The notes below the pieces were generated by a model. The model did not search any database, was not told the origin of the DNA, and worked only from the letters and a program-made list of their open reading frames with translations. 33,560 nucleotides of DNA from Fragilaria crotonensis (Eukaryota; Bacillariophyta; Fragilariophyceae; Fragilariales; Fragilariaceae): the NCBI GenBank assembly GCA_022925895.1, contig JAKSYS010000678.1, forward strand, positions 1-33,560, written 5' to 3'. The stretch's first letter is position 1; each line of letters starts with the position of its first letter. A program made the translations under genes and the position numbers. Shown here piece after piece: positions 680 to 26,843 of this stretch.

Positions 680-2547
680 ATGACGAGGTACTGGGAGTAA
701 GCGCGTGGGAAGTAGGCAAGGTAGTAACAACGCAAGCCGCGACCTCCAACTTGACTAAGCCACCATTAAATTCGCCTCGACTGGCACGAACCTTCAGGTT
801 AAGCAAGCGACTCCTTCGTCTACTGGCCGATGGATGAAAGGCAGATTCCCACGATGTTGTTTATATATATATGTAGTCATACTGCATGTGCACAAGCTCT
901 TCGTGCACCGTCCGGTACCAGGTGCTACCTGGTACCTGGTACTGCTGGCTAGTACCGGAGTAGGGGCCTCCAGGGCCTGGCCGTATGAACGTGTGACATG
1001 TGTCATTTGATAGTTAGATGCAGATACACGTAGATGTGTCACAGGAACACATGGACAATGAACAGACATCGTCGACCGCTGGCCGCTTCCGGATCCCCCC
1101 CAACTTTTTTTTTCCGGACCGTCCGTCCTTATGTCGGGAAAAAGTTACTCAAAAAACAAAGTTGAGCCAACCTCAACTTTTCGTTGCAAAGTTGCGTGAC
1201 AAAGTTGGGCTCCAACTTTAAAAAGCAACTCTAGCTAGTCTACTTTGAAAAAAAGTTGAGGGTGTTCGAGTCAGGTTAATCGTAAATCGTATCTTCATAG
1301 TTCATAGATCATAGTTCAAAGTTCATACTTCATACCATTAGCACAACATCACAACGTTAGCAGCGTTCGTCATTGCTCTTCACAAGCATAAACAAACAAC
1401 ACTTCCCTCGCTATGATGGACTTGACGCCGAAGCCCTTACACTGTTGAGGAATGTGATTGGGTCCCTTTGTACGTAATAGTGCACTCACGGTGTTGTAAA
1501 GAAACGACAAGTATGGCTGTATGCATACTCGCAGTCCAAGTAGAAGTGGCGCGGAGATTCGAGATTTGGTTGACAGTTAAGGATGCGTGAGAGAAAGGAT
1601 GTGCGAGAGAATCTGGCACAAGTATTGGGTCAGAAATCAAACCATCGGCAAGAGAAGGGAACACGAAAGAATTGATTGGTGTAGCCTGGAATCATGCCAA
1701 GAATGACTGGCATTGGTCACGGAACACCGTGCCCCAAACAATTGTCACCAATGCCGAATGATGTTGAAGAAGGGGAGGAGGTCGGTGAAACAAATTGGGT
1801 CCTGAACAGTGACGAACAGAAGAGGAATACAATGTGCAGGATATTGTTATAATTGCTGTTGCGGAATACTTGATTGGATTTCAGCGACAAACACTGCTCT
1901 CCGACTGAGTAATTGTGCAATAATAATAGGCATACAGAAAAGGCATGTTCTTTATAGAGTCGCATACTACTAGCTAAGATATGACATGACAACATGACAT
2001 ATTAAGTGTACAGAGGTCTGCAGATGTCGGTGCCATCGTTGAGCATGATCGTCATGAACTCGAACGTGTACTGGAGTGTGGTGGACAGTGGGCAGAGGAC
2101 AGCGTACTCGACAAATTCACACGAAAACAACGGTCGCCTTGTCAACGAACCCGGAAAATGGACATGTTTTGGTTTTCTTCGATTTTAAGGACGAGTAGCG
2201 GACAAAGTTGAAACCGAAGTTGGGGGTGAGTTTTGAAACCAGTTTTTTCCTACGATAAGGATGGGAGGATGGGCCTCAACATTCAAAATGTCGTCGAAAA
2301 AAAAGGAATTAGGAATGTTGACCATATCGCGCTTCTCGTTTCGGTGGAGAACAATGACAGAAAGACCAATTTTCACTGTTGATTCGTAATGTATTCCATT
2401 TTTTTTCAAAACATCGCACCCGTCCCAAATCATTCGAATTGGATTGGGTGACAATTGGTATGCCACACATGAGATTCGATCAACGAAGACTTCTCTCTGC
2501 TCTTGTCTCTTAGTAGTACGTACTGTGCAGATCATCTCAGTATTCCG
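680..2547. other. Intergenic region with repeats, no supported gene
   Basis: No open frame in this 1.9-kb stretch has recognisable domains or coding-like composition. It holds a GTAC-palindrome patch (about 905-955), a cluster of AAAGTTG/CAACTTT motifs (about 1098-1262), a short run of TTCATAG-like repeats (about 1289-1335), and the presumed promoter of the glycosyltransferase starting at 2548. A 116-codon minus-strand frame at 2185-2535 overlaps the upstream part of that gene and has no recognisable features. Confidence 0.6.
1098..1262. repeat. Cluster of AAAGTTG / CAACTTT motifs in both orientations
   Basis: Within about 165 bp the heptamer AAAGTTG or its reverse complement CAACTTT, with near variants, occurs about eight times, separated by A/T homopolymers. 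Examples lie near 1100, 1143, 1159, 1174, 1186, 1200, 1213 and 1250. Neighbouring copies in opposite orientation could pair into small stem-loops. It may be the remnant of a small transposable element or a dispersed binding-site array; nothing else identifies it. Confidence 0.5.
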
Positions 2548-4050
2548 ATGAAGATTAAATCGAAAGGATCCAGGCGAATCAGGATTACCGCGACGTCCAT
2601 ACTCGTGGCAACGGCTATGTGTGTTTCGATTGTCATTTTCCCAGCCCTCCTATACGTTCCACCTCATTTGGATCAAACGACGGAAAATGGCCGGTTCGCT
2701 CCATTGAGATTAACTGATACCCGAAAAGTGCTGGGTCAAAACCACACTGGAAACCTGCGACCTTTCCGTGCGACAAGTAGCGAACCGCGATACTTTTTGG
2801 TCTTCTCGACCAGTTGTGATAAAATTCAAGATTGGCAAGCCATGGCTTTTTTCTATTTTGCATACAAAGTGAATCAACCCGGGTATGTGGTGCGCATTGT
2901 ATCGGGCTGCAGGTTTGACTTTCAGATTAAGGCGCAAACAACAGTTTTCGAAAAGAGAATAGCACCCATGTCCCCTCGATTCTCCTTGCACATCACACCC
3001 GACTTTGGTGTCAAAGACAATAAAAAGTACTGGAACAAACCACACGGGCTGTTGGATTGGATGGAAAAGGGGCTGGGATTCCCGGAGCGGGCGGCAGAAT
3101 ACGAAAATGATATAATTATCATTCTTGATCCCGATATGATGCTTCTGCAGCCGATCACTCATTACTTCGACAACTACTCTTCCGGGTGGGTCGCCAAGAC
3201 TATGACCGACAAGGTAGTGCCTGGGATACCTGTTGCGCAGTACTATGGATTTGGGAGTTCTTGGTTGACATCATTAAAGGGAAGATTAGATTACGTTGTC
3301 GGGTCAGATTCTCCGGCGTTGGACGTCTCTCTTCAGGATGCTTCCGACTACTACCCTGCAGGCCCACCTTACTTGGCAGTCGCCAGCGATATGTACAACA
3401 TTGCTGTACATTGGGTCCGGTTCCTGCCTCGTGTCCACGACTTGTTTCCGCAGTTCATGGCAGAAATGCATGCGTATTCCATTGCGGCCGCTCATTTGAA
3501 AATGCCACACCAACTTGCAAAAGGATTCATGTTGTCGGACGTTGGTGCGAGCAAGAAAGAGGCATTTGATTTTCTAGATGGTGTGACTCGACGCGACGCG
3601 TGTCTGCCAGACATTCCGATTGAGAAGTTGCCATACGTGATGCACTACTGTCAACGATACGCCGTCGGACGGTGGTTCTTTAGCAAATACAAGCTGCGTG
3701 AAGACTTTTTCGACTGCGATGCCCCTTTGATGAGAGAACCGCCCAGAAATGTGGCTGAATTGTACGATTGGCACATTTTTCCTAATGGTGTAGAATTTGG
3801 AGACTATCATGACGAGTGGACACAACAGCTTATCATCCGGCACACGTGGATGCTTTGCACAGTCCTTTTTTCCCTAAACGAAGCGGCAATAGACGTCAAA
3901 ACAAAACACTGTGGACCAACGGCAAATTTTATGAAGACATTTCATTTCCACGACGAAAAGTTGTTCCAGCTTGCACTGAATGATACTTCGAATCCATTCC
4001 TTATTCAGGATAAGAACGAGAGGAACATGAAGCTGTTTTTTGGCACATAG
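2548..4050 (+). CDS. HPAT/SGT-like peptidyl O-glycosyltransferase (copy 1), type II Golgi membrane protein
   Basis: A 500-residue member of the hydroxyproline O-arabinosyltransferase/peptidyl-serine galactosyltransferase superfamily (GT95/GT96-like). Such enzymes add a sugar to hydroxyproline or serine of secreted glycoproteins in the Golgi. I chose the ATG at 2548 (MKIKSKG) over 2503 because it places a basic cap directly before the single N-terminal membrane anchor (about residues 12-36) and matches the MKKIQ starts of copies 3 and 4. Visible motifs are the opening strand FLVFSTSCDKIQDWQ (about 83-97), a NKPHGLLDW block (about 163), the metal/donor-binding DPDM (D194-P-D196), AGPPYLA, and EMHAYSIAAAHLK, which matches the EMYGYSFGAAE block of plant HPATs. 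It ends 54 bp from the convergent VHL/cyclophilin gene. Donor and acceptor specificity cannot be read from sequence. Confidence 0.85.
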   Translation: MKIKSKGSRRIRITATSILVATAMCVSIVIFPALLYVPPHLDQTTENGRFAPLRLTDTRKVLGQNHTGNLRPFRATSSEPRYFLVFSTSCDKIQDWQAMAFFYFAYKVNQPGYVVRIVSGCRFDFQIKAQTTVFEKRIAPMSPRFSLHITPDFGVKDNKKYWNKPHGLLDWMEKGLGFPERAAEYENDIIIILDPDMMLLQPITHYFDNYSSGWVAKTMTDKVVPGIPVAQYYGFGSSWLTSLKGRLDYVVGSDSPALDVSLQDASDYYPAGPPYLAVASDMYNIAVHWVRFLPRVHDLFPQFMAEMHAYSIAAAHLKMPHQLAKGFMLSDVGASKKEAFDFLDGVTRRDACLPDIPIEKLPYVMHYCQRYAVGRWFFSKYKLREDFFDCDAPLMREPPRNVAELYDWHIFPNGVEFGDYHDEWTQQLIIRHTWMLCTVLFSLNEAAIDVKTKHCGPTANFMKTFHFHDEKLFQLALNDTSNPFLIQDKNERNMKLFFGT

Positions 4051-4104: not shown

Positions 4105-4970
4105 CTAAAGTTCTTCGGTGCCATCATTGCTCTCACTTGAAAGGATGCGACACTCATTGATGTAGCTCAACTTTGGAAACTCCCTCTTCAGATATTCATA
4201 ACCATCTTCTTCGTAGATAAGTTGTGGATCCGGCCCAGATCCCCACGGCGGCATATCACCGTAATCATACCATTGTGCAACCGTGGACATCGATTCTGGT
4301 TCCACAAACCCAAAGGGTGTCTCCCATGAATTTTCTTTGCCGAAATATGCGAGCTGCGCTTCTCCAGTATCTGGCATGACAATGAAAATTTCACTGGATC
4401 GAGAGTCCGGACCGGATCCAGCATAACTCATGTAGCCTGGTTGAAAGGCAATTCCTTTCGGGGCATCGTCCTTGATGTTGGCCGTTCGATATTCAGTACG
4501 CAGTTCATAATCGGCGCCGATTCCGAATTGTGTCAAAGAATTCCTTCACAACACGATTGAGACCGCATCCGTCAAAGTAGCTACGGTGCACCAATTCCAA
4601 GAACCGACCCGCACCGATAGGCGCCCAATCGGGTTTGACGACGACTCGCAAGTCGCCAGTAGAGGTGGTACATAGAACATGGACCGAATCATCGCCAATT
4701 GCATGAGTTTCATGGTTACTCTGGACCAATACTGTGTGGCGTTCCTGCCGGAAGTAGTACACAAAGGTATGACCAATGGACGTCTCGTGCACGGTCTCGA
4801 GGTAGGGGAACGAGACTGTCCACAGCAACTTCAGACCCGGAAGACTCGTCGAACCAGAATAGCTCGACCGCCTTCTCAGAGAAGTTGATGAAGGAAACTT
4901 TGATGTCTTCGGCAAGAGCGAAGTTTAAGACATGGGCCACCAACAGGAGCAGAATGCACGACGGCACCAT
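4105..4970 (-). CDS. Secreted VHL-beta-like + divergent cyclophilin fusion, reading frame broken twice
   Basis: Three overlapping minus-strand frames read as one protein of about 287 residues. The preferred start at 4970 (MVPSCILLLLVAHVLNFALA) is a clean signal peptide in a good start context; an upstream ATG at 5045 exists. Residues 24-75 resemble the pVHL beta domain: FINFSEKAVELFWF, then SLVP, then TSIGHTFVYYF, keeping the W, S and H that line the VHL hydroxyproline pocket, with Y98 and W117 replaced. The C-terminal part resembles a cyclophilin: GRFLELVHRSYFDGCGLNRVV, then TQFGIG, then YAGSGPDSRSSEIFIVM, keeping catalytic-type Arg, Phe and Gln. The frame changes at GGGG 4805-4808 and again at AAA 4535-4537 (forward strand); each is repaired by removing one base. 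Either both are sequence errors or the gene is decaying. It converges on HPAT copy 1 and diverges from copy 2. Domain assignments are by eye. Confidence 0.6.
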
Positions 4971-5519
4971 GGTCCTGAATGACGAAGGAATAAAGATCCT
5001 GGAGTGAGCTGCTGCTATGAATGAATTTATTCTGAATTTTGACATTGTGACCAGGATTTCTGGGGTGCAGTACCAGGTACATGTAGTGTAGACAGTTCTG
5101 TACTGGTACTACAGTATTTGGCATTCGCATGACGGGTTCAGTGGTGTGTTGTACTGTACGTTATACCAGATCCGCACGTACGGTTAGGAGTTTGGAGTTC
5201 GGAAACCGGAAGTGTAGGTACAAGTACCGGTAGCCGTGATTCCGACAGTGGTCATTAACTGCCGGTACAAGTACTCTTCATGTCGTAGATCAGCACTGTT
5301 CGACAAAAGCACTTGCTAAGATTCCTCTGACTGTTACGAGTTACGATACTTGTCAATCGGCGACAGTACTCTGTACTCAGTATCGTACCGCCTATGCACA
5401 TATAGACCCGAGTCCAGAGTCCAGAGTCGTGCCAGCGTTTTGGTCTTGCATTACGATTTCATTCGCCAGCCACAACACGAACTCGTTGGAGGGCTGAGAG
5501 ACCTTCATTCCGACCAAAC
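4971..5519. promoter_or_regulatory. Bidirectional intergenic region, GTAC-rich
   Basis: This 549-bp gap separates the divergent VHL/cyclophilin gene and HPAT copy 2, so it probably carries both promoters. It contains many GTAC tetramers within GGTACA, CAGGTAC and AGTACTC contexts (about 5068-5280 and 5360-5390). No known diatom promoter element is recognised with confidence. Confidence 0.45.
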
Positions 5520-7004
5520 ATGGCGCGAGTAAGGGTGGTAGGAGTGGCCACTCATGCCCTCCATGCGTTCTCAGGGCTTTTGGGGATGACCTTGGTTGTC
5601 TGCGTATTTTTGTGGACGTATCTGCCGTCAAATGATCTACATCCAGTCGGTCATCCATTGGACGCTCTGAATGTCCTCCATCACGATGTTGTCGAGCCAC
5701 CACATGAAATGCTTGTCGGGAAGAAAGAAGATAAAGTTCATGAACCAGTCCATGAAGGTGGCGCGACTGACCCTCACTATTACATGGTCTTCTCAACGGA
5801 CTGCTCTCCCTATCAAGATTGGCAATCGTACCTGTTCTTTTACTTTGCCAAGAAGGTTGGCCAAGCGGGCACTGTCACACGCATTGTTTCGGGATGCAAG
5901 GATCACGATCGCAAAACTCTCCAAAGCTTCCACGACGAGAAAATTGCCGTCATGTCGGATGCCTTCAAGATACATTTTGCACCTCCGTGTCCAGACAGTC
6001 GATCCAAGTATTTCAACAAGCCTTATGGACTGCGGGATTTCATGGAGAAAGCCTTAGGATATCCAGACAATAAACACGATGACGATATCATCATGATAGT
6101 GGATCCTGATATGATGCTGTTGAGACCATTGACACATAAGTTTGACCTGCTTCGAATCAATTGGGTGATTGCTGACGCCGATCATTACGACACTGTCGAG
6201 CATGGAAAACCCATTGCCCAGACCTATGCGTATGGAAGTTCGTGGATCACAACCTTGGGACTAAATGCCTCGAGCATCGCAGGGAAAGACTCACCCGCAC
6301 TATATCTCAGCCTCATGGACGCTGCCAAACAATATCCCGCGGGTCCACCTTACCTCGCTACAGCTCGAGACATGTACAACATTGCGGTACATTGGACAAA
6401 ATTTGTGCTCAAAGTACACGACATCTTTCCAAAGATGATGTCTGAGATGCATGCGTACAGTTTTGCAGCAGCTCATTTGAAGCTACCGCATCAGCTTACC
6501 ACAAGTTTCATGGTTTCTGATGTGGACTGTCCAGATCTCGAGGGATGGAACTTTCTTGAAAATATGAAACGTGAAGACGCCTGCGTTCCGGATGCTATTC
6601 CAATGGAAGATTTACCATATGTCCTGCACTACTGTCAGCGTTTCGCACTTGGCCGGTGGTTCTTTGGTAAACATAAGATTCCCAAGAAATTCTTTGATTG
6701 CAAAGCACCTCTGCTGCGCGAACCTTCGTACGATACAGCAGCAAAATACGATTGGTATCTCCTTCCCAACGGCAAGGATGTAAGTGTCTATACCAAGAAG
6801 CCCTTTCGAATACTGCAGAATGGATGGGCCATGTGTCGTATGATTCGATCCCTCAATGAAGTAGCGGTTGACTACAAGACCAAATACTGCCCCAAAGATT
6901 CGATCAACCTGGACAAGTCCTTCGTATTTCACAAGTCGGCCGAGTTTGAGGCCTTTCTGGGAGGCGATGTGCCCGCTTTGGTCCTCGAACGCTACGACCA
7001 CTAA
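5520..7004 (+). CDS. HPAT/SGT-like peptidyl O-glycosyltransferase (copy 2), type II Golgi membrane protein
   Basis: A 494-residue paralogue of the other three HPAT-like proteins and the most divergent of the four. A single hydrophobic anchor (about 16-36) follows a short basic N-terminus, then a His-rich stem. The catalytic domain shows YMVFSTDCSPYQDWQ (about 88-102), FNKPYGLRDFMEK (about 155-167), DPDM (D175, D177), YAYGSSW, AGPPYLATARDMYNIAVHW and EMHAYSFAAAHLKLPHQL. These correspond in order to conserved blocks of plant and algal HPATs. Expected role: glycosylation of hydroxyproline- or serine-rich secreted or wall-associated proteins in the Golgi; substrate not determinable. Its stop lies 33 bp from the stop of the convergent GNAT gene, so 3' UTRs must overlap. 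Confidence 0.85.
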   Translation: MARVRVVGVATHALHAFSGLLGMTLVVCVFLWTYLPSNDLHPVGHPLDALNVLHHDVVEPPHEMLVGKKEDKVHEPVHEGGATDPHYYMVFSTDCSPYQDWQSYLFFYFAKKVGQAGTVTRIVSGCKDHDRKTLQSFHDEKIAVMSDAFKIHFAPPCPDSRSKYFNKPYGLRDFMEKALGYPDNKHDDDIIMIVDPDMMLLRPLTHKFDLLRINWVIADADHYDTVEHGKPIAQTYAYGSSWITTLGLNASSIAGKDSPALYLSLMDAAKQYPAGPPYLATARDMYNIAVHWTKFVLKVHDIFPKMMSEMHAYSFAAAHLKLPHQLTTSFMVSDVDCPDLEGWNFLENMKREDACVPDAIPMEDLPYVLHYCQRFALGRWFFGKHKIPKKFFDCKAPLLREPSYDTAAKYDWYLLPNGKDVSVYTKKPFRILQNGWAMCRMIRSLNEVAVDYKTKYCPKDSINLDKSFVFHKSAEFEAFLGGDVPALVLERYDH

Positions 7005-10244: not shown

Positions 10245-10527
10245 GGTGACTAAATCACGCTTCGGACGACAGATGGATCAAGAGCTCTGGAGTCTGGAGT
10301 CGATGGTCGAATGCTTGACAACGACTGGGTGCACGTCGGTTTTGGGGCACAGGAGCGACGGCGTTGGAGCACGGGAACAATATCGAGGGAGGCAGGAAGG
10401 TCCGGCCCAAGCACGTTTCGCGATTAAATAGATGTACCTTAAGGATGGGCGCGCCAGCCAATGTCCGGCCGGCGTGATGAGTGCTTGTTAGGATCTGTGT
10501 CGTTTCATTCGAGCTGGCAAGGTTCAG

Positions 10528-10795
10528 CAAATGTCAGCAGATTTCTTTTTCGTCAGCAAATGTCAGCAGATTTGCTTTTCGTCAGAAAATGTCAGCAAAC
10601 TTGATTCTCGTCAGCAAGCGTCAGAAGATGTCAGCATCACCGTAGCTTTTGTACTGGGAAAAACTCGTTTTCGTCAACATATGTCAGAAAATGTCAGCAG
10701 ATTCGTTTTTCGTCAGCAGATGTCAGCAGATTCGTTTTTTGTCAGCGCATGTCAGCAGATCTGTCTTTTCGTCAGCAAGTGTCAGCAAAACGAAG
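10528..10795. repeat. Degenerate minisatellite with a unit of about 29 bp (GTCAGCA-based)
   Basis: Units follow the pattern GTCAGCAGAT, TCGTTTTTC, GTCAGCAAAT with a period near 29 bp. Three are fairly clean at the left end and three to four at the right end, with a more degraded middle around 10615-10690. GTCAG occurs over fifteen times. The unit itself contains two GTCAGCA half-units, so it may have grown from a shorter 10 to 19-bp repeat. There are no regularly spaced unique spacers, so it is not a CRISPR array. Confidence 0.75.
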
Positions 10796-11504
10796 ATGAC
10801 GCTGGCATATCCAGTTTAGCACCAGCCAGACACGGAACGGAAATGATTTTCGCCTCCGGCCAGCGTGTATTCGACCTTGATTCACGACTAAGCGTGTATT
10901 ACCGGACCTTCCAGCCCGAGTGAATCCTTGCGCTCTACTGTACAAGTTCCTACGCCTCTCCCCCGCACTAGTATCTCGTATGTACTCGGGCTAGAGGAGG
11001 GGGGCACTCTTGACACGAAGCAGCTACGCAGGGTTTTATGGTTGTAAAAGTATGATAGAGTGAAGATGGATAAAGATACCCGGATTTTCAGTATGCCCCG
11101 TGCATATGACATATGAATATGATATGCCTCGGATGACCACAGACCACAGGCAAAAGTATGTCATCCCAGTGTACTCTATGATACAAGCATACCAGGTACT
11201 CGGAGCTCGGAGTACAATCGTAGTAGAATACCTTGTACTACTACCAGGTACAGTACCAGGTACCATTATACCCGGAAGGACCTTGTCCCCCAGTACGTAC
11301 TCACGTACTGGTATGCACAGTACTGGCCTTGAGACGCGGTCATAATTCTTTTTCAAATATGGTACTACCAGTACTCTCTGGCCCTACTACTAGAACCTAG
11401 TACAAGAAGTACGTAAAAAATTGATCCGATGTGTGACATCGTAAGACACAAAAGCCTCTGGATTGCTGGATTGTGCCTGCTGGCCACGGATAGACAGGTA
11501 TGCT

Positions 11505-11725
11505 AATAGCGACCAAAGGAATTATGACCGACGATGACCGAAAATTAGAAACGGCCCTCTAGTTTTGCACACAGCCGAGTTAACTGTTAACCCGTGTAAT
11601 GGTGGCTTCCTATAGGCTATACGAAGCCACCATTACACGGGTTAACAGTTAACTCGGCTGGGTGCAAAACTAGGGCCGTTTCCAATTTTCGGTCATCCTC
11701 GGTCATAATTCCTTTGGTCGCTATT
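11505..11725. mobile_element. Near-perfect long inverted repeat (hairpin), MITE or foldback element candidate
   Basis: The arms are about 103 bp each and pair almost base for base: AATAGCGACCAAAGG on the left pairs with CCTTTGGTCGCTATT on the right, and GTTAACAGTTAACTCGGC in the right arm answers the left arm. The central loop is only about 13 bp (around CTATAGGCTATAC). With a one-base gap the pairing extends a few bases further out on each side. The element carries no ORF. It ends about 140 bp before the RING/TPR start codon, so it may lie in the promoter or 5' UTR. Confidence 0.8.
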
Positions 11726-11863
11726 GCATACATACACCGGTACCCACAACGATTTCAGTACTTGTATGTACCCCATTTGAGACTTGAGACTGAACTTCAT
11801 CAGTCTCTCTCGTTGCCAGCAAAGCCTTCATATCAATTGACCAACCTACTACTCCAGGGCGCC

Positions 11864-13891
11864 ATGGGATTAGATTTGGATCACGTGGAGTCTGACCGAA
11901 GCCATTATGTGACATTTGTCTGCAAAATTTGCAACGGCTTAGCCGACATGAATGCAATGGTAACCGCCAAGTGTAGTCATGCATTCTGCAAATCCTGTGT
12001 CGATGATTGGTTGACAAAGTCGACTGGATGTCCGGTTTGTAACTTACCTTTGGAAGGTACATCAGGCGAAGAAAAGGGGTCGACTGGTCGAAAGGGGCCT
12101 TCTCCGAATGGTATCATGTCTCTTCAAACTTCGCAACCATTGGCATTTGCCTGTCTGTCGAGAATCAAGGTATGCTGTCCTCGTTGTACGACGTGGAGAG
12201 GAGAGTACGGACAGCTTGTGGAACACGTGAAGGTGCATAATTCGGCTCGAGATTCCGCTCCGCATGAACAAGTTCGAAGACCAGCCACCCGAAGGACTAC
12301 GGAAATTTTTTCGAGTCGACAGATGGGAAGTCCTGCTATTCGACGGCAGAATTCGGTGTCGATCCCACCAACAGCATCGGATTTCCGGAAAATGGAACCT
12401 CGAAGGTCCGTTGTTGCACCCTCCGCAACCAGCGAACCAGAGGAGTCACTTTCATGGCCAGACGACAGTCTGGGGAAGGAACCTGGCAGTGAAGGAGATA
12501 CTAGATCACAACGGGCCAAGAAAATGGGACGATCACCTGCACCGAATGCAGGACAGAATAAGGCTGCACTGTCCGAAGCAGGCATTCTGAAGGAAAAAGG
12601 AAACGCAAAGTTCAATAGAGGTGAATACGTGGAGGCCAAAGGCTTGTATGATCAGGCTCTGGCAATTGTCAAAGATATAAAGTTTTCCTCCGACGAAGAA
12701 AGAATTGCTGTTGCTTCTCTTTATTGTAACCGCGGAGCAACTTATGCGAAAGAGAAACTAACTGATGAGGCTATTCGTGATTATGACGCCGCTATCCGTA
12801 TTGCTCCTGAGTTCCCAAAGGCATATGCAAGGAAATGCAAGGTATTGGCAGCGAAGGGCAGATTGGCCGAGGCCAAAGCTTTGATGGAAACCGCTGTCTT
12901 AAAGATTCCTGGTGACAAAGCGTTGTTGGATGAACTCAAAAACGCAAATCGGATTCTTGAGGGGATGGAAACCATTACGAAGATGCTTCAGCTTCGTCAA
13001 TACGTTGAAGCCTGCAACGCTGGTGCATCCTTGCTGAGAACGACGGATAACATCGAAGCAATTCTATTGTCAGCTGAGGCGGACGCTTCCACAGGGCTCA
13101 TCGAATCTGCCTTGGAAAAGTGTGAATTCGTCTTGATGGGCGACCCAGCGAACGTGATTGGATTGAGAACTAAAGGTTGTGTATCGTTTTTGGCAGGAAA
13201 CATGGAGGTCGCGAGCAGCTTGCTCAAGGAGACCCTCAACCTAGACCCGAACGACGTCAACGCTAAAGAACTGCTGCGGGTGCACCGCAAGGTGCAGAAC
13301 GATTTGAATAAGGCTAGAGCAGCGTCTGCCGATGGATCCAGGGCTATGCTGAAAAAGGCTGTCGAATTCTTTACTTCCGCCATCGACGAAGAATCGATCC
13401 CTCCTTCATGCCCGCTGATGATTAGTCTACGAACAGAACGGGCAGAAGCTGCCATGCAATTAACGCACTTCGCAGGAGCACTCTCAGATGCCCGCGCTGT
13501 TATTGAAGCCAGCCCACGATGCGTGCAAGCCTGGGTGATCAAAACCAACTCGTTGATTGCCACTGGACGCGCGCTTGAAGCTCGGAACGAACTAAAGGGA
13601 GTCAGACAGACCTGGGCCCGCAACCTGCCTGAAATTGAGGGAGCGTATAAGCGTGCTGATTTGGAAGCCAAGATTGATGACGCTGACAAGGAACTTCGTG
13701 CGATGGTTTCGAGTCCTTCGACTGGGCGTAGGAGTGAGGAGCTTCAAGGTGAGCGATTGTCCAGCTCGGACCATCACGACACTCTTAGGGCTTCTGTTCC
13801 CAATCCCAGAGTCACTAGAAGGCCTAGTTACGAGGCAGGCAGGACAGACAAGCATTTAATGGCAAGCAAAGTCGTCGGTACACGGAGATAA
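11864..13891 (+). CDS. RING-finger / TRAF-type zinc finger / TPR protein, probable E3 ubiquitin ligase
   Basis: A 675-residue protein. I chose the ATG at 11864 (gcgccATGg context) because the RING begins 20 residues later; the in-frame ATG at 11714 would start inside the hairpin element and add an unlikely leader. Residues 20-59 form a C3HC4 RING (C20, C23, C37, H39, C42, C45, C56, C59), and about 104-125 a second Cys/His finger (CCPRC ... H ... H) of TRAF type. A low-complexity Ser/Arg linker follows. TPRs begin at about 239 (GILKEKGNAKFNRGEYVEA, then NRGATYAKEKLTDEA, then AYARKCKVLAAKGRLAEA) and weaker helical repeats continue to about 610. The expected role is ubiquitin transfer with TPR-mediated partner binding; substrate unknown. 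The protein may continue into the tail at 13835-14160. Confidence 0.82.
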   Translation: MGLDLDHVESDRSHYVTFVCKICNGLADMNAMVTAKCSHAFCKSCVDDWLTKSTGCPVCNLPLEGTSGEEKGSTGRKGPSPNGIMSLQTSQPLAFACLSRIKVCCPRCTTWRGEYGQLVEHVKVHNSARDSAPHEQVRRPATRRTTEIFSSRQMGSPAIRRQNSVSIPPTASDFRKMEPRRSVVAPSATSEPEESLSWPDDSLGKEPGSEGDTRSQRAKKMGRSPAPNAGQNKAALSEAGILKEKGNAKFNRGEYVEAKGLYDQALAIVKDIKFSSDEERIAVASLYCNRGATYAKEKLTDEAIRDYDAAIRIAPEFPKAYARKCKVLAAKGRLAEAKALMETAVLKIPGDKALLDELKNANRILEGMETITKMLQLRQYVEACNAGASLLRTTDNIEAILLSAEADASTGLIESALEKCEFVLMGDPANVIGLRTKGCVSFLAGNMEVASSLLKETLNLDPNDVNAKELLRVHRKVQNDLNKARAASADGSRAMLKKAVEFFTSAIDEESIPPSCPLMISLRTERAEAAMQLTHFAGALSDARAVIEASPRCVQAWVIKTNSLIATGRALEARNELKGVRQTWARNLPEIEGAYKRADLEAKIDDADKELRAMVSSPSTGRRSEELQGERLSSSDHHDTLRASVPNPRVTRRPSYEAGRTDKHLMASKVVGTRR

Positions 13892-14160
13892 ACCCGCGGG
13901 TCGCCAGCGTTATTACAGATATATCTGAGGACGCCGACCGCAGACGAATGTCGTATGGCGACCAACCGAGCAGACGGGAGAGTATAGTTGTTGATCGGGG
14001 AACTGCATTTGAAAAGTCTGATGTAGTCCGAGCAAATAGCAGAGAACCGAGATTTGAGAGTAAAAACACCAATCCAAAAGGGGAGAGCGTAACGAGACAG
14101 TCGATAAGGAGACCGAGTGTGAACGAAGATGACCTCAGGCGACGTATCAGCATGATATAG
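13835..14160 (+). CDS. Probable C-terminal extension of the RING/TPR protein (spliced or frameshifted tail)
   Basis: An open frame runs to a TAG at 14158-14160 and encodes an Arg/Ser-rich tail of about 107 residues (SRRYTEINPRVASVITDISE, then MSYGDQPSRRES, ending RRRISMI). It can be joined to the upstream ORF by an intron of 86 bp from GT at 13749 (CAAG/GTGAGC, a good donor) to AG at 13833-13834 (a weak acceptor lacking a pyrimidine tract), which keeps phase. Alternatively one frameshift near 13830-13860 would join them. A recognisable copy of this tail exists at 17978-18415. It ends 12 bp before the stop of HPAT copy 3. Confidence 0.45.
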
Positions 14161-14172
14161 GACATCGCCTAT

Positions 14173-15606
14173 TTATCCAGGATTGTCTTCCTTTCCATCC
14201 CTCTCAAAGGGATTTGTAGGATCATTCAGCATTTCTTGAAATAGGGTCTCGTCGTGGAAGTGCCAGCTCTTGTCAAAGTTCGCTGTCCCACCGCAATGCT
14301 TTTCTTTCAGTGATGTAGACACTTCATTCAAGGAATAGATCATTTTGCATAGCATCCACCCATGCAGTACAATGCTATGTTCGTTCTTTCCTTTCACAAA
14401 TTTTTCGCCTTCAACTCCGCTTGGAAAGGCGTTCCAGTCGTATATTTCAGCAACATTCAGAGGAGGTTCCCTGAGCAATGGGGCCTCGCACTCGAAGAAA
14501 TCCTCTCGAACCTTGTGTTTGCTGAAGAACCAGCGTCCGAGGGCATATCGGTGACAATAGTGCAAGACAAGTGGCAGATTCTCTTGTGGAATTTTTGGTG
14601 AGCAGGCCTCGGCTCGCGTCACATTGTCTAGGAACTTGAAACCCTCGTACTTGCCCCCATCTGATACATCGGATACCATAAAGTCGGGTGTCAGTTGATG
14701 AGCTAACTTGAGATGAGCTGCGGCAACGGAGAAGGCATACATTTCAGCCATGAAATGAGGAAAGAGGTCGTGCACGCGAGGTAGAAACTTGACCCAGTGT
14801 TTGGCAATAGCATACATATCTTTGCCGGTGGCCAAGTATGGCGGACCAGCTGGATAATACAAAGCCGCTTCACTATTTGTCAACTTATGAACCGGAGAGT
14901 CAGGTCCCACGACATGCGACACATTTCCATTCAAAGAAGTCAACCAGGCTGAACGATATCCGTATTTTTGAGCGATCGGAAATCCGTGGACTACCTTGTC
15001 GCCCTTGAGTGTGCCAATCCATGTAGGCTTGAAGTTGCCAAAGTCATGTGAAATTGGTCTCAGAAGCATCATGTCGGGATCCATAATGATAATAATGGAA
15101 TCATCATGGTCTGTGGCGTTCTCTGGGAAACCAAGTTCCTTTTCCATCCAGTCTAACAGCCCATATGGTTTGTTCCAGTACTTCTGGTTGTCACGCACGT
15201 CGAAATCAGGAGTTATGTGCATCTGAAAGTCTGCGTTAAGTGGAGCAATCTTTTCCGCATGAATCTTCGTCAACGCCGCCGCTTCTTCTTTTGTGCACCC
15301 CGAAACCAATCTTGTCACAGTTCCTGACTGTTTCACGTTCTTGGCAAAGTGAAAGAACGCCATTCCTTGCCAGTTCTGAAATGGCGAGCAACTTGTCGAG
15401 AACACCATATGATGGTGGGGCCCCGAACGTTTTGACTTGTGCTGCTGCCGGATTTGGTTGTCGCCTTCGGATGCTGCGACTCCAAGTAGAGGGTGGCTGT
15501 TTGACTGTATATTTGCCGGGGGGAGAAAGCTCATAAATGACAGCAAAGTCATCATACCCACCGCTGAAATGGCAAAAAACAGCATGAACGGTTGGATTTT
15601 CTTCAT
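14173..15606 (-). CDS. HPAT/SGT-like peptidyl O-glycosyltransferase (copy 3)
   Basis: A 477-residue type II membrane protein, nearly identical to copy 4 at 18422-19855. The membrane anchor is at about residues 7-29, directly after MKKIQP. Conserved blocks are HMVFSTSCSPFQNWQ (about 66-80), WNKPYGLLDWMEKELGF, DPDM (D166, D168), AGPPYLATGKDMYAIAKHW and EMYAFSVAAAHLKLAHQL. The expected role is a Golgi glycosyltransferase acting on hydroxyproline- or serine-containing glycoproteins. One oddity is YGYRSAW at residues 205-211, where the other three copies have G at the R208 position (YGFGSSW, YAYGSSW, YAYGSAW). It lies in the duplicated 1.9-kb block and converges on the RING/TPR gene. Confidence 0.85.
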   Translation of the reverse strand: MKKIQPFMLFFAISAVGMMTLLSFMSFLPPANIQSNSHPLLGVAASEGDNQIRQQHKSKRSGPHHHMVFSTSCSPFQNWQGMAFFHFAKNVKQSGTVTRLVSGCTKEEAAALTKIHAEKIAPLNADFQMHITPDFDVRDNQKYWNKPYGLLDWMEKELGFPENATDHDDSIIIIMDPDMMLLRPISHDFGNFKPTWIGTLKGDKVVHGFPIAQKYGYRSAWLTSLNGNVSHVVGPDSPVHKLTNSEAALYYPAGPPYLATGKDMYAIAKHWVKFLPRVHDLFPHFMAEMYAFSVAAAHLKLAHQLTPDFMVSDVSDGGKYEGFKFLDNVTRAEACSPKIPQENLPLVLHYCHRYALGRWFFSKHKVREDFFECEAPLLREPPLNVAEIYDWNAFPSGVEGEKFVKGKNEHSIVLHGWMLCKMIYSLNEVSTSLKEKHCGGTANFDKSWHFHDETLFQEMLNDPTNPFERDGKEDNPG

Positions 15607-15635
15607 TGTTCCTCGTTCAATGGATGCATCGACGT

Positions 15636-17689
15636 TATCAGAGGGACGAGTACTATGCCGCTCAGAGGAATTGCATCGGCATAAATCATAACCAATGCTT
15701 AATCTCTCATGAACATCAGGCTTAAGTTTCTGCTAATGCTCCAAAAAAAAGGTAAGAGTGAGGTAAAGATGTGTGTGCAGTGTGCAATGAACAATGATGG
15801 AGATAAACGGTGTTAGACGCTCGATCCGAAAACCTGTGTCAATTTTGGGAAAGAGGTTCCAAATTGGTACTTCAAATCGGCATTTTACCAATTTGTGCTT
15901 TCCAAATTGGTAAACACTTCCAATTCGTTGTTGTTTCTTCGGTACATTAGCGCAGACAAAAAGGCGGCATATTCTATGCTCGTTGTGTTCCATCTCTCAG
16001 TAAGTCAACATCCTTGAACAAGAGGAATGTTACATCAGTTGAACAAATCAAATTCTCTGAGAAAGTTGGTAAGTCAAGACATTCCAAAATGCACATGATG
16101 CTGTTCCATCTTCTGGTCAACTGAGTGCTGTTTGGTGTTTTCCATTTGGAACACAACTTATGGGTGAGAATGCAGAGGATTTTGACCAGCTTGATAGGCA
16201 GGACCTCTCACAATTTGTTTGTTGGATCACAAATCAATATTATGTCATTCATAAATCTGTCTTGCTTGGGTGACCATGCATGGTTTGAAGACAGGGTTGG
16301 TGCTGAGAAGGCGAATGTAGTATCCTTGCATAACAAAAAGGTGATTTCAGCATCAGGAGCAGAAAATATAGGGTTGCTAGTCGCTAATGAATGCACAATT
16401 TACTGAGGATGCATTCTCAGAAGGGTATCACTCTTGATGACAACAACAGCATCCAAAACTTGTTGTAATGGCCAATGCCATACATGCAACTAATGAAGAC
16501 CCCGCCGCTTTCAAGTGGTACAAAGGAAACATCAATGAGTCAATTCTGAAATTTTACATTGATAGCAATTTGATGGAAGGCAACAACTTGACGAAAAGCA
16601 ACAGCAAGTGCTAAGGTGCAATGAATACATCTGTCAGAAGAAAGGGATTGCAGTTTGTGTTCATGATGATCAAGCAATGGCAAGGGAGGATTTAGATGCG
16701 TCGAACTTAGCTTACAGAAAATGGAACGCTTGTTAAAAGAACTAGCAAATAGAGATGGAGACTCACGGGATCCCAACTGATCACCCACTTTTCACTGTCA
16801 CCAAGGCAGATTCATACGAGTCTACATTCGATGCTTGATTGCTTGGTAGGAGCTAAAGCACGATAAGTTGCTTGCACCGAGACGAATCCTAGTAGTCGGT
16901 GTGAGAGAGGATCAGGCTTGATGTTGCCAATGAGGTTTCTAACAGCTTCCAGACTATTCTCCACTTCACTGAAAACTATGCAAATGCCTGCTTAACTAGA
17001 ATTTTCCATTGACTGAGCAAATCATTGAGGAGCAACTTGCTGTGAACCAGAGCGAGGGAATGGAATCAAAACATGATCAGAGATGACGTGTCCATTGTCT
17101 GCCAAACCATGAAAACCATGTGGCAATGAGTCAATCTATTGCTTTAGTAGTTTAGTTAAGGTCAGTGCATTTGCATCAGGGAAACTCCCAGGAGCTGTCA
17201 CTGATAAATTAAAGAAACTTACCAGAATGATTTGACAAAGCCTGAAACAATCAGGCTATCATTTTTGTGGTGACCTGAGTTAAATGCTACAACAGGTTCT
17301 CAGTCTCACTTGCTGAAGGGGATCTGATTAAGGCCGTCAACTTATCAACAAGTGCTCTGACACAGCCCCTGAAGATGGGCCTGGAAGCATGTGCCCTCAA
17401 AGTGTGAAGCAAACTTTTCCAATCCATCGATATCACAAGAATATGACGGGAGTGAATCAGGCTGAGGTTTTCGGTTCGTTCAAGTCATCGGAGAAAGGGT
17501 CCAGTCGGTGTCTGACGCGACGGAGGAAACATTCCTAGCGGCACCAGCGGCTGTCGCCCTTGGCGTGGGTTGCGTTGGTGATTTGTTCTGGGCAGCCGAC
17601 ACAGCAAGTCTCGAATTCGGGAAGTGAGGGTTGGAGACAAGCCAATGATCCTGAAGGTCTGGGCACAAAGGTGAGCAGATGTCTTTTGA
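15636..17689. other. Long region without a gene, relatively AT-rich, possible decayed element
   Basis: About 2 kb between copy 3 and the NOP9 fragment. The part from about 15980 to 17440 differs from neighbouring DNA: more A/T, few GTAC words, and many short frames broken by stops (longest about 93 codons at 16125-16406). One 48-codon stretch from 16468 has coding-like composition (FKWYKGNINESILKFYIDSN). I cannot match it to a family. A decayed transposable element or captured gene is possible. Near 15855-15915 the words CCAAATTGGTA and TACCAATTTG repeat in alternating orientation and could form a stem. Confidence 0.4.
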
Positions 17690-17977
17690 TGAGTTGGGTG
17701 ACTTCGGTGAAATCTTTGGACAGCTGTTCACCTTCCCTTGGAACTATGAGTGTATTGGCTGCTGTTGACGAAATGACGTTGATTCCTTTGCGGGAGACAA
17801 CCATGGCGCACAGATTATCGAACTCATGGCACGGATTGGCCCTACATATCCAGAAACAGCTAGCTAGTTGTATTCTTATGGGGTAGAGTGGCTACTATTT
17901 GCAGCTAGCGACCCATCGCTACGGGCCTCATGCCTCGCAGAGGATTTTGCAACTTGAAGAGACGTCGTACTCGGATA
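17690..17977 (+). pseudogene. Decayed fragment of the NOP9-like PUF gene (5' part)
   Basis: This stretch aligns with about 20815-21093 of the intact gene downstream. Shared words include TTGCGGGAGACAA, GCACAGATTATCGAACTCATGGC, CTAGCGACCCATCGCTACGG and GATTTTGCA. It is broken by stops (for example GGGGTAGAGTGG, where the parent reads GCAGGGTTGAGTGG) and by indels, so it cannot encode the PUF segment. It stops abruptly at about 17975 and passes directly into the duplicated RING/TPR tail, giving a chimeric junction. Confidence 0.75.
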
Positions 17978-18415
17978 CGAGCTTCAAACAGAACGATTCT
18001 CCAACTAGGATCATCACGTCAACGCTAGGGCGTCCGGTCCCAATCTCAGAGTAAGGCCGAGTTGCGAGCCACGCTGGAAAGGCATTTCACAAGTCCTGGC
18101 AAGCAAACTCATCGGCCCACAGAAATAATCGCGTGTCGAGCCTGTGCTACATCCGGAGCATCGGCAGAGCGTGGTATATCTGATGACGCCGATCACAGAC
18201 GAGTGTCTTATGGCGACCAACCGACGAACAAGGAGAGCGTAGGTGTTGATCGGGGAACGGGATTTGAAAAGTCTGATGTAGTCCGAGCAAATAGCAGAGA
18301 CCTGAGAGTAAGAAAACCAACCCAAAGGGGGAGAGCGTAACGAGATAATCGGTTAGAAGATGGAGTGCGCACGCAGATGACCTAAGACGACGTATCAGCA
18401 TGATATAGGATGTTG
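17978..18415 (+). pseudogene. Duplicated 3' tail of the RING/TPR gene
   Basis: It matches 13739-14160, including GAGCTTCAA, GTATGGCGACCAACC-like, AAAAGTCTGATGTAGTCCGAGC and CGTATCAGCATGATATAGGA. A 92-codon frame (18062-18340) still reads SYGDQPTNKES and FEKSDVVRANSRD, like the parent tail, but there is no RING or TPR upstream and the donor GTGAGC of the parent is changed to ACAGAAC. No start or promoter is apparent, so it is a passenger of the duplication. It lies beside the 3' end of HPAT copy 4. Confidence 0.7.
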
Positions 18416-18421
18416 TGCCTA

Positions 18422-19855
18422 TTATCCAGGATTGTCTTCCTTTCCGTCTCTCTCATACGGATTTGTAGGATCATTCAGCATTTCTTGAAATAGGGTCTCG
18501 TCGTGGAAGTGCCAGCTCTTGTCAAAGTTCGCTTTCCCACCGCAATGCTTTTCTTTCAGTGACATAGACACTTCATTCAAGGAATAGATGATATTACATA
18601 ACATCCACCCATGCAGTACAGTGCTGTGTAAGTGATTTCGTTTCACGAAGTTTTCGCCTTCAATACCGTTTGGAAAGGCGTTCCAGTCATATATTTCAGC
18701 AACATTCAGCGGAGGTTCTTTCAGTAATGGGGCCTCGCACTCGAAGAAGTCCTCTCGAAGCTTGTATTTGCTGAAGAACCAGCGTCCGAGGGCGTATCGC
18801 TGACAATAGTGCAAGACAAGAGGCAGATTCTCTTGTGGGATTTTTGGCGAGCAGGCCTCGGCTCGCGTCACATTATCAAGGAACTTGAAACCCTCGTGCT
18901 TGCCCCCACCTGATATATCGGATACCATAAACTCGGGTGTCAGTTGATGAGCTAACTTGAGATGAGCTGCGGCAACGGAGTAGGCATGCATTTCAGCCAT
19001 GAAATGAGGAAAGAGGTCGTGCACGCGAGGTAGAAACTTGACCCAGTGTTTGGCAATAGCATACATATCTTTGCCAGTGGCCAAGTACGGCGGACCAGCT
19101 GGATAATACAACGCCGCTTCTCTATCTGTCAACTTATGAACCGGAGAGTCAGGTCCCACGACATGCGACACATTTCCATTCAAACAACTCAACCAGGCTG
19201 AGCCATATGCATATTGTTGAGCGATCGGAAATCCGTGGACCACCTTGTTGCCCTTGAGTGCCCCAATCCATGTAGGCTTGAAGTTGCCAAAATCATGTGA
19301 AATCGGTCTCAGAAGCATCATGTCGGGATCCACGATGATAATTATGGAATCATCATGATCAGCTGCTTTCTCCGGAAAACCAAGTTCCTTTTCCATCCAG
19401 TCTAACAAGCCATGGGGTTTGTTCCAATATTTCTGGTTGTCATGCACGTCGAAATCAGGAGTTATGTGCATCTGAAAGTCTGCGCTAAGTGGAGCAATCT
19501 TTTCCGCATGAATCTTCGTCAACGCCGCCGCTTCTTCTTTTGTGCACCCCGAAACCAATCTTGTCACAGTTCCTGCCTGTTTCACTTTCTTGGCAAAGTG
19601 AAAGAACGCCATTCCTTGCCAGTTTTGAAATGGCGAGCAACTTGTCGAGAACACCATATGATAGTTGGGGCCCGAACTTTTTGGCTTGTGCTCTTGTCGG
19701 ATTTGGTAGCCGCCTTGGGCTGCAGAGATTTCAAGTAAAGGGTGGTTGTTTGGTTGCACATTTGCCGGGGGGAGAAAGCTCATGAATGACAGCAACGTCA
19801 TCATACCCACCGCCGAAATGGCAACAAACAGCATGAAGGGTTGGATTTTCTTCAT
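18422..19855 (-). CDS. HPAT/SGT-like peptidyl O-glycosyltransferase (copy 4)
   Basis: A 477-residue type II membrane protein, the recent sister of copy 3, with no length difference and only scattered substitutions. The anchor lies at about residues 7-29. Motifs: YHMVFSTSCSPFQNWQ (about 65-80), WNKPHGLLDWMEKELGF, DPDM (D166, D168), YAYGSAW (G208), AGPPYLATGKDMYAIAKHW and EMHAYSVAAAHLKLAHQL. All blocks expected in an active enzyme of this superfamily are present. Differences from copy 3 concentrate in the stem (about residues 32-62) and near 385-400. Function as for the other copies: Golgi glycosylation of secreted proteins, substrate unknown. Confidence 0.85.
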   Translation of the reverse strand: MKKIQPFMLFVAISAVGMMTLLSFMSFLPPANVQPNNHPLLEISAAQGGYQIRQEHKPKSSGPNYHMVFSTSCSPFQNWQGMAFFHFAKKVKQAGTVTRLVSGCTKEEAAALTKIHAEKIAPLSADFQMHITPDFDVHDNQKYWNKPHGLLDWMEKELGFPEKAADHDDSIIIIVDPDMMLLRPISHDFGNFKPTWIGALKGNKVVHGFPIAQQYAYGSAWLSCLNGNVSHVVGPDSPVHKLTDREAALYYPAGPPYLATGKDMYAIAKHWVKFLPRVHDLFPHFMAEMHAYSVAAAHLKLAHQLTPEFMVSDISGGGKHEGFKFLDNVTRAEACSPKIPQENLPLVLHYCQRYALGRWFFSKYKLREDFFECEAPLLKEPPLNVAEIYDWNAFPNGIEGENFVKRNHLHSTVLHGWMLCNIIYSLNEVSMSLKEKHCGGKANFDKSWHFHDETLFQEMLNDPTNPYERDGKEDNPG

Positions 19856-19885
19856 AGTTCCTCGTTCAATTTATGCATCGAGTTT

Positions 19886-20705
19886 GACCCTATCAAAAGG
19901 CCAACATCCATGCACAGTGTGCAGAAGAAGCATTCACAACATGTGCTCTACAGCTTTGAGTGGTAATTTCGTATGATTCCTGCATTCCTGCAGTACTGTA
20001 CCATGGTACTAGTAAGTTTGTCGCCAAAAATGCATGACAGTTGTTACTGGTTACGGAGTTCTACCGGTAGTTCAATGCAACGTCTATGTAACCGTTAGTG
20101 ATGACACTGTATCTATGTACAGTACCTAGTACACAGATTCAATGACTTCTTCAGTTCTCAGCGGTACCAGTGCACCAGTACACTACAGTTCTTCAGTACG
20201 TGTACTCCAGTTGTCGAGAACTACCGGTGTGCTACTGTACCAGGTACAGTAGTTCCAGTACGTAGGACTGAACCATACGGGTCCGATTAGGTTTCACCAA
20301 TTTGACGTCAGCGCCCACGTCACAGTACTGATGTCTTCACGTTCAACGTACTGACATACAGTACTACAGTAAGACAGTAACATACTGAGAGCATCGTGAT
20401 TGGTATGAAATACGCGCTGACGTCAAATTGGTGAAACCTAATCGGATCTGGTTACTGTAGCGGACGGCGCACATCCAGAACTCTGCAGTACTGGAGTATT
20501 GTACTATCAGGCGGTAGTAGAGTACCAGCTTCTGGGTACCAGGTACAAGTACCCGTACTGGTATGAGCAGCGTTAAGACAGATTTAATCGACTCTACGCT
20601 GTACATGTTGACGGTCTGGCGACTCACCACTCATTCCTAGAGTAGAGGGAAATACAATACACAATACTCCTTCATCTTCGATAGGAAAAATACTGAGAGT
20701 CGACA
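19886..20705. other. Intergenic region with GTAC islands and a perfect inverted repeat
   Basis: This 820-bp stretch separates the divergent HPAT copy 4 and NOP9-like genes and should contain both promoters. It is among the densest GTAC regions of the window (about 19988-20280 and 20340-20560) and contains the 33-bp inverted repeat at 20282-20446. No gene is supported. Confidence 0.5.
20282..20446. repeat. Perfect 33-bp inverted repeat, 99-bp spacer, CRE-like palindrome in each arm
   Basis: The left arm 20282-20314 and right arm 20414-20446 are exact reverse complements (TCCGATTAGGTTTCACC ... on the left). Each arm contains TGACGTCA (20303-20310 and 20418-20425), the palindromic cAMP-response-element core also described in CO2/cAMP-responsive diatom promoters. 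The spacer is GTAC-rich and carries no ORF. It could be a small MITE with 33-bp terminal repeats or a regulatory module about 260-420 bp upstream of the NOP9-like start. Confidence 0.8.

Positions 20706-26780: not shown

Positions 26781-26843
<63 letters not shown>

What the first reader, a model, noticed from the sequence alone, without database searches (positions are those of the whole stretch)
4105..4970. Secreted VHL-beta-like domain fused to a divergent cyclophilin
Directly visible: a signal peptide, a segment matching the pVHL beta-domain pattern (F-I-N-x-S ... E-L-F-W ... S-L-V-P ... S-I-G-H-T-F), then cyclophilin-type blocks (GRFLELVHRSYFDG, LNRVV, TQFGIG, YAGSGPDSR). Known: the VHL beta domain binds hydroxyproline through W88, Y98, S111, H115 and W117; here the W, S and H positions appear kept and Y98/W117 changed. 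Cyclophilins isomerise prolyl bonds. Inferred: a secretory-pathway protein that may recognise (hydroxy)proline and isomerise nearby bonds. I know of no characterised protein with this layout.
Basis: partly seen in the sequence, partly recalled or inferred. Interest (0 to 1): 0.72.

Follow-up and report, generated by a model that had tools for sequence, protein, structure and literature searches.

The report
VHL-like domain fused to secreted cyclophilin
A eukaryotic gene, broken by two one-base frame shifts in this sequence, appears to encode a secretory-pathway protein that joins a relative of the hydroxyproline-reading part of the VHL tumour suppressor to a proline-bond-flipping enzyme, and it sits between two genes that resemble hydroxyproline sugar-attaching enzymes.

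Summary
The observation largely holds. On the minus strand, 4970 to 4105, one gene encodes 287 aa once two one-base frame breaks are read through (runs at 4805-4808 and 4535-4537). The cyclophilin is certain: Pfam Pro_isomerase E 1.6e-13, 51.6 bits against a cut-off of 21.7. Its subfamily is common in one bacterial phylum. The VHL domain is sub-threshold in Pfam (13.9 bits, cut-off 21) and unreported for the whole protein. An independent profile of 27 bacterial VHL domains scores it 18.4 bits; the best of 5000 shuffles reaches 8.0. Aligned with human pVHL, W88, H115 and N78 are kept; S111 is Thr, Y98 is Val, W117 is Phe. I read it as a secretory/ER prolyl isomerase with a VHL-like substrate-binding module. 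Hydroxyproline recognition is plausible but unproven. No eukaryotic relative could be searched, and the structure model was uninformative.

The parts
4105..4970 (-). Whole gene: ATG at 4970 (ACCATGG context), stop 4105-4107; 287 aa when two one-base frame breaks are read through
   Evidence: an upstream in-frame ATG at 5045 would add 25 aa (sequence)
4911..4970 (-). Signal peptide, residues 1-20 (MVPSCILLLLVAHVLNFALA), cleavage likely after ALA
   Evidence: sequence; the most hydrophobic 12-residue stretch of the protein starts at residue 4; no signal-peptide program was available
4724..4910 (-). VHL beta-like domain, about residues 21-82; pocket residues W39 (W88), V50 (Y98), T63 (S111), H67 (H115), F69 (W117)
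4805..4808 (-). Frame break 1: run of four C on the gene strand, one base more than the frame needs
4144..4690 (-). Cyclophilin-type peptidyl-prolyl isomerase domain, about residues 94-275, including the YGDxPPxGxGPD...FPKLxYI tail of its subfamily
4535..4537 (-). Frame break 2: run of three T on the gene strand, one base more than the frame needs
4108..4119 (-). C-terminal TEEL, resembling ER-retention signals (one residue off the recalled [KRHQSA]-[DENQ]-E-L pattern)
   Evidence: sequence; pattern recalled, not tested
2473..4050 (+). Neighbour, tail to tail: HPAT-like (hydroxyproline O-arabinosyltransferase family) open frame with N-terminal hydrophobic anchor
   Evidence: PF23452 E 2.1e-4, 21.2 bits, below the 23.9 cut-off; its DNA aligns with that of the other three copies
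5406..7004 (+). Neighbour, head to head: second HPAT-like open frame (ATG at 5520), with an intergenic stretch 4971-5519 between the two starts
   Evidence: PF23452 E 1.1e-7, 32 bits, above cut-off

Best explanation
A eukaryotic secretory-pathway prolyl isomerase. A signal peptide sends it into the ER, and a C-terminal TEEL may hold it there. An N-terminal VHL-like beta domain serves as the substrate-binding module. The following cyclophilin domain catalyses cis-trans isomerisation of prolyl bonds near the bound site. The likeliest clients are proline- and hydroxyproline-rich secreted or cell-wall proteins, which the neighbouring HPAT-like enzymes may later glycosylate. Shown here: the domains, their order, the single frame apart from two one-base breaks, and the neighbours. 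Inferred: ER residence, that the cyclophilin is active, what the VHL-like pocket binds, and any functional link to the neighbours. The two breaks are most likely sequencing or assembly errors in short base runs.
For: Pro_isomerase 51.6 bits. Arg55, Phe60, Gln63, Ala101 and Phe113 equivalents kept in the window and in 17 of 17 aligned bacterial rows (human cyclophilin A numbering recalled). VHL-like domain by independent profile, 18.4 bits against a best shuffle of 8.0 in 5000, and by hhalign, score 28.5 against a best of 21.5 in 200 shuffles. The profile holding it finds human pVHL at 5.9e-15, although that score comes mostly from the 15 bacterial rows. W88 and H115 kept, S111 as Thr, the commonest residue there in bacterial VHL domains (18 of 27). 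HPAT-like genes on both sides, four in the window, 3 of 4 above Pfam's cut-off. No in-frame stop in 287 codons. A similar one-base break occurs in the NOP9 gene of the same window.
Against: Pfam VHL is sub-threshold (12.3-13.9 bits, cut-off 21) and unreported for the full 287 aa at E up to 10. The unjoined first piece gives no VHL match, only NPHP3 at E 0.28. Y98 and W117 are changed, and W117 is W in 27 of 27 bacterial domains. Cyclophilin Gln111 is Glu, where 17 of 17 aligned rows have Gln. The fold model of the VHL part has mean pLDDT 48.5. Two breaks in one 866-base gene could mean a pseudogene. Physical neighbourhood in a eukaryote is weak evidence of joint function.
Confidence: 0.5

Rival explanations
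1. A secreted cyclophilin with a VHL-fold beta-sandwich that does not bind hydroxyproline: the domain is a structural or general protein-binding extension.
For: Two of five pocket residues changed, including W117. VHL-like domains are scattered in bacteria: 26 of 26 rows match VHL and every other family listed at E up to 0.01 is in 1 row.
Against: W88, H115 and a hydroxyl residue at S111, which line or hydrogen-bond hydroxyproline in pVHL (PMC9528729, passages), are kept. HPAT-like neighbours.
Confidence: 0.33
2. A recently broken pseudogene of such a protein.
For: Two frame breaks in 866 bases, whereas the four HPAT-like frames in the window are long open frames.
Against: No in-frame stop in 287 codons. 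Both breaks are single extra bases in short runs, and NOP9 (expected to be conserved and needed, recalled) shows the same kind of break, which points to sequence error.
Confidence: 0.17
3. The VHL resemblance is chance and the N-terminal part is an unrelated beta-rich extension of an ordinary secreted cyclophilin.
For: Sub-threshold Pfam score; not reported for the full protein; no VHL in the unjoined pieces; uninformative model.
Against: 18.4 bits against 27 independent VHL domains, best of 5000 shuffles 8.0. Best of 823 six-frame pieces even in its broken frame. In the joined forms VHL was the only Pfam family besides cyclophilin, at E up to 10 and up to 1.
Confidence: 0.07
4. Two genes, or an intron-separated model, rather than one fusion protein.
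For: Three frames in the raw sequence.
Against: One-base joins restore near-exact family spacing across each break. The linker between the domains is open in one frame, with no stop and no in-frame ATG.
Confidence: 0.04

Closest known systems
pVHL beta domain (Pfam PF01847; human VHL)
   Same: N78, W88, G114, H115 and nearly the same spacing between W88 and H115 (28 against 27); Thr for S111
   Different: Y98 is Val, Y112 is Ser, W117 is Phe; no alpha domain (elongin-binding part, recalled) follows, a cyclophilin does; signal peptide; Pfam score below cut-off
Bacterial VHL-like domains (23 of 282 genomes in the phylum of G001)
   Same: Domain core; Thr at the S111 position is their commonest state (18 of 27)
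   Different: They keep W117 in 27 of 27; none of 26 scanned rows matches cyclophilin at E up to 0.01, though at least three rows (L006, L010, L026) were cut by the locus end
Cyclophilin subfamily found in the phylum of G001 (L001, L031-L045)
   Same: Near full-length similarity, 35-43% identity in the fetched matches; NIKDDAPK-like block; tail GPDQ...G..YLK..FPKLDYI
   Different: The window has Glu for Gln111, an insertion at YFGKENSWETPFG, and the fused VHL-like domain
Other multi-domain cyclophilins: dual FKBP-cyclophilins (PMC6316441) and oomycete cyclophilins (PMC7168621)
   Same: Cyclophilin combined with another domain in single-celled eukaryotes
   Different: The partner here is VHL-like; 'VHL' occurs 0 times in the held main text of either paper (figures and supplements not seen)
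P3H1-CRTAP-cyclophilin B collagen complex of animals (recalled)
   Same: An ER cyclophilin coupled to hydroxyproline biology
   Different: There it is a complex of separate proteins with a hydroxylase; here it is a fusion with a putative reader domain

Membership tests
Cyclophilin-type PPIase (PF00160) | Profile score above the curated cut-off | tested here: met
   51.6 bits against 21.7, E 1.6e-13; the middle frame piece alone also passes, 27.5 bits; the last piece alone does not, 14 bits
Cyclophilin-type PPIase (PF00160) | Catalytic Arg55, Phe60, Gln63, Phe113 (human cyclophilin A numbering, recalled) | tested here: met
   all kept; Gln111 is Glu
Cyclophilin-type PPIase (PF00160) | Isomerase activity | not testable with these tools
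   needs an assay
VHL beta domain (PF01847) | Profile score above the curated cut-off (21 bits) | tested here: not met
   12.3 and 13.9 bits; not reported for the full protein or the unjoined pieces
VHL beta domain (PF01847) | Similarity to independent family members beyond chance | tested here: met
   18.4 bits, best of 5000 shuffles 8.0; hhalign 28.5 against best shuffle 21.5 of 200
VHL beta domain (PF01847) | Hydroxyproline pocket W88, Y98, S111, H115, W117 (PMC9528729, passages) | tested here: inconclusive
   W88 and H115 identical, S111 as Thr, Y98 as Val, W117 as Phe
VHL beta domain (PF01847) | Beta-sandwich fold (recalled) | tested here: inconclusive
   single-sequence model, mean pLDDT 48.5, no residue at 70 or more
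pVHL E3 ligase subunit | Alpha domain that binds elongin C (recalled) | tested here: not met
   the segment after the beta-like domain is a short linker and a cyclophilin
ER-resident protein | Signal peptide plus KDEL-type C-terminus | tested here: inconclusive
   hydrophobic N-terminus with ALA end; C-terminus TEEL deviates at its first residue (pattern recalled)
HPAT (PF23452), the neighbouring genes | Profile score above cut-off 23.9 | tested here: inconclusive
   3 of 4 above (32, 34.1, 34.2 bits), 1 below at 21.2

The most novel reading that the evidence does not exclude
A hydroxyproline reader fused to a prolyl isomerase: the VHL-like domain docks on hydroxylated proline in the ER, the cyclophilin flips nearby prolyl bonds, and the protein works in one cell-wall glycoprotein route with the adjacent HPAT-type glycosyltransferases. 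It would be a secretory counterpart of the oxygen-sensing reader pVHL.
Probability: 0.22. Interest if true: 0.78.

Novelty: new variant of a known kind. Interest (0 to 1): 0.52.

Why it matters
VHL is known as the hydroxyproline reader of oxygen sensing. A VHL-like domain in the secretory pathway, fused to a prolyl isomerase and encoded between hydroxyproline-glycosyltransferase-like genes, would suggest that hydroxyproline reading also serves the folding or maturation of secreted proline-rich proteins. It would give a directly testable candidate for how single-celled eukaryotes handle such proteins.

Tried and rejected
No whole genome is held for the window. Scans of viral contigs with the joined protein and with the VHL part found no relative. 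The phage search with the middle frame piece gave one weak hit, E 0.07, not followed. The genome-contig scan gave only two loci, both bacterial cyclophilins. The structure model of residues 20-95 was too poor to search with (mean pLDDT 48.5), so no fold search was made. A viral-contig search with an alignment of bacterial VHL domains could not run. Rfam found nothing in the window at its gathering thresholds. NCBIfam gave only sub-cut-off PPIase matches for the joined protein. An intron at either break was rejected on spacing. Programmed frameshifting was considered and set aside without a test: it would need two events in one gene.

Literature: ten searches; judged from the listed titles and abstract starts, none describes this architecture (one search listed 10 of 13 papers, one search listed 7 of 8). 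Passages of PMC7773692, PMC9528729, PMC9002001, PMC7168621 and PMC6316441 were seen by term search, none as a whole.

Full report
What is there. The gene lies on the minus strand, ATG at 4970 and stop at 4105-4107. The raw sequence splits it over three frames. Reading through one extra base in the C run (plus-strand 4805-4808) and one in the T run (4535-4537) gives 287 aa without a stop. The start has an ACCATGG context; an in-frame ATG at 5045 could add 25 aa. The pieces were scanned apart first. The middle piece matches Pro_isomerase above cut-off and the last piece below it; no piece alone gives VHL, and the first piece gives only NPHP3 at E 0.28.

Cyclophilin. Joined, the match is 51.6 bits, E 1.6e-13, over residues 100-232. 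The best PDB matches by sequence are cyclophilins, E 2e-7 at best. The one genome-contig scan found a myxococcal protein (L001) matching residues 102-275, 41% identity in the best segment. In the same phylum 157 of 188 genomes have a match at E 0.001 or better, and the best-scoring ones run over nearly the whole domain. In an alignment of the window with 17 bacterial rows (16 distinct genes), the Arg55, Phe60, Gln63, Ala101 and Phe113 equivalents are kept in all; Gln111 is Gln in 17 of 17 rows and Glu in the window (numbering recalled). So the 'divergent' cyclophilin is a member of a widespread subfamily with its own GPDQ...FPKLDYI tail.

VHL-like domain. In the joined forms Pfam VHL is the only other family named, but below cut-off: 12.3 bits on residues 1-154, 13.9 bits on the domain alone, against 21. 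It is not reported for the whole 287-aa protein at E up to 10, a result against it. For an independent test I collected VHL domains from bacterial genomes: 23 of 282 genomes, 28 places, all above cut-off. A profile from 27 of them (L015 dropped) scores the window domain 18.4 bits and the full protein 15.2. The best of 5000 shuffled domains is 8.0 and the best of 2000 shuffled full proteins 5.0. Without any frame repair, the first piece (4719-5108, minus) is the best of 823 six-frame pieces of the window, 10.5 bits, E 0.016; the next best is 7.2 bits. hhalign gives 28.5, probability 76%; the best of 200 shuffles is 21.5. A profile of the window domain plus 15 bacterial ones finds human pVHL at 5.9e-15, which shows mainly that the bacterial set is truly VHL.

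The pocket. PMC9528729 (passages) names Trp88, Tyr98, His110, Ser111, His115 and Trp117 around hydroxyproline, with Ser111 and His115 bonding its hydroxyl. In the window these are W39, V50, E62, T63, H67 and F69. In 27 bacterial domains W88 is W in 27, H115 is H in 26, S111 is T in 18 and S in 6, W117 is W in 27, and Y98 is Y in 15. The window thus keeps the two hydroxyl-contacting positions in kind and loses Tyr98 and Trp117. Hydroxyproline binding is possible but not shown.

Location. Residues 1-20 look like a signal peptide, with the most hydrophobic stretch of the protein at residues 4-15. The protein ends in TEEL, one residue off the recalled ER-retention pattern. No localisation program was available.

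Neighbours. The genes on both sides, 2473-4050 and 5406-7004, match Pfam HPAT, the hydroxyproline O-arabinosyltransferase family: 21.2 bits, below the 23.9 cut-off, and 32 bits, above it. Two more copies lie at 14173-15732 and 18422-19870 (34.1 and 34.2 bits) in an 88% identical duplicated stretch. The VHL-cyclophilin gene is tail to tail with the first and head to head with the second. tblastn found no second copy of it in the window. This fits a hydroxyproline theme, but tandem duplication can also place genes together by accident.

Frame breaks. Both breaks are single extra bases in short runs. The NOP9 gene (20697-22821) has the same kind of break, most simply placed at GGG 22365-22367. 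Sequencing or assembly error is most likely; a young pseudogene cannot be excluded.

What I could not do. No eukaryotic genome collection could be searched, so neither the organism nor the spread of the architecture is known. That it is a eukaryote follows from its genes (NOP9, clathrin-adaptor medium subunit, RING-TPR protein); 'diatom' is untested. The single-sequence fold model was uninformative. 0 of 26 bacterial VHL-bearing rows match a cyclophilin at E up to 0.01, some of them cut by the locus end. Judged from titles and abstract starts, none of ten literature searches listed a paper on this architecture (listed in Tried and rejected), and an oomycete cyclophilin survey (PMC7168621) and a review of dual-domain immunophilins (PMC6316441) hold the word VHL 0 times in their held main text.

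Verdict. The two parts are known families in a combination I did not find described. The hydroxyproline-reading mechanism is a fair hypothesis at about one in five.

Noticed in passing
2473-4050 (+), 5406-7004 (+), 14173-15732 (-), 18422-19870 (-): Four open frames resembling hydroxyproline O-arabinosyltransferases (PF23452), each with an N-terminal hydrophobic anchor and a DPDM motif (sequences); 3 of 4 above Pfam's cut-off.
   Followed up: partly
13739-15632 and 17979-19881: Direct segmental duplication, 88% identical, carrying one HPAT-like gene each; a fragment at 17756-17979, 78% identical to part of the NOP9 gene, adjoins the second copy.
   Followed up: no
22336-22379: NOP9 gene shows a one-base frame break, most simply an extra G at GGG 22365-22367, the same kind as the two in the VHL-cyclophilin gene.
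   Followed up: partly
11498-11731: A 234-base stretch 94% identical to its own reverse complement, i.e. a long near-perfect palindrome.
   Followed up: no
20282-20446: A second, weaker self-inverse stretch, 73% identical to its reverse complement.
   Followed up: no
11600-13891 (+): A RING-finger plus TPR protein in one open frame.
   Followed up: no
10524-10629 and 10683-10787: Two arrays of a related 29-base repeat; also 59-base repeats at 32820-32946 and a (GT)29 run at 26783-26840.
   Followed up: no
Bacterial open frames in alignment A2 (rows not named by the call): One VHL-bearing bacterial open frame also matches SpvB and TcdB-midN families (probably L006), and one also matches a protein kinase domain.
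   Followed up: no
L015 873-1100: A place reported above Pfam's VHL cut-off (27.1 bits) whose translation on either strand barely matches the profile of the other 27 (4.1 and -0.9 bits).
   Followed up: partly
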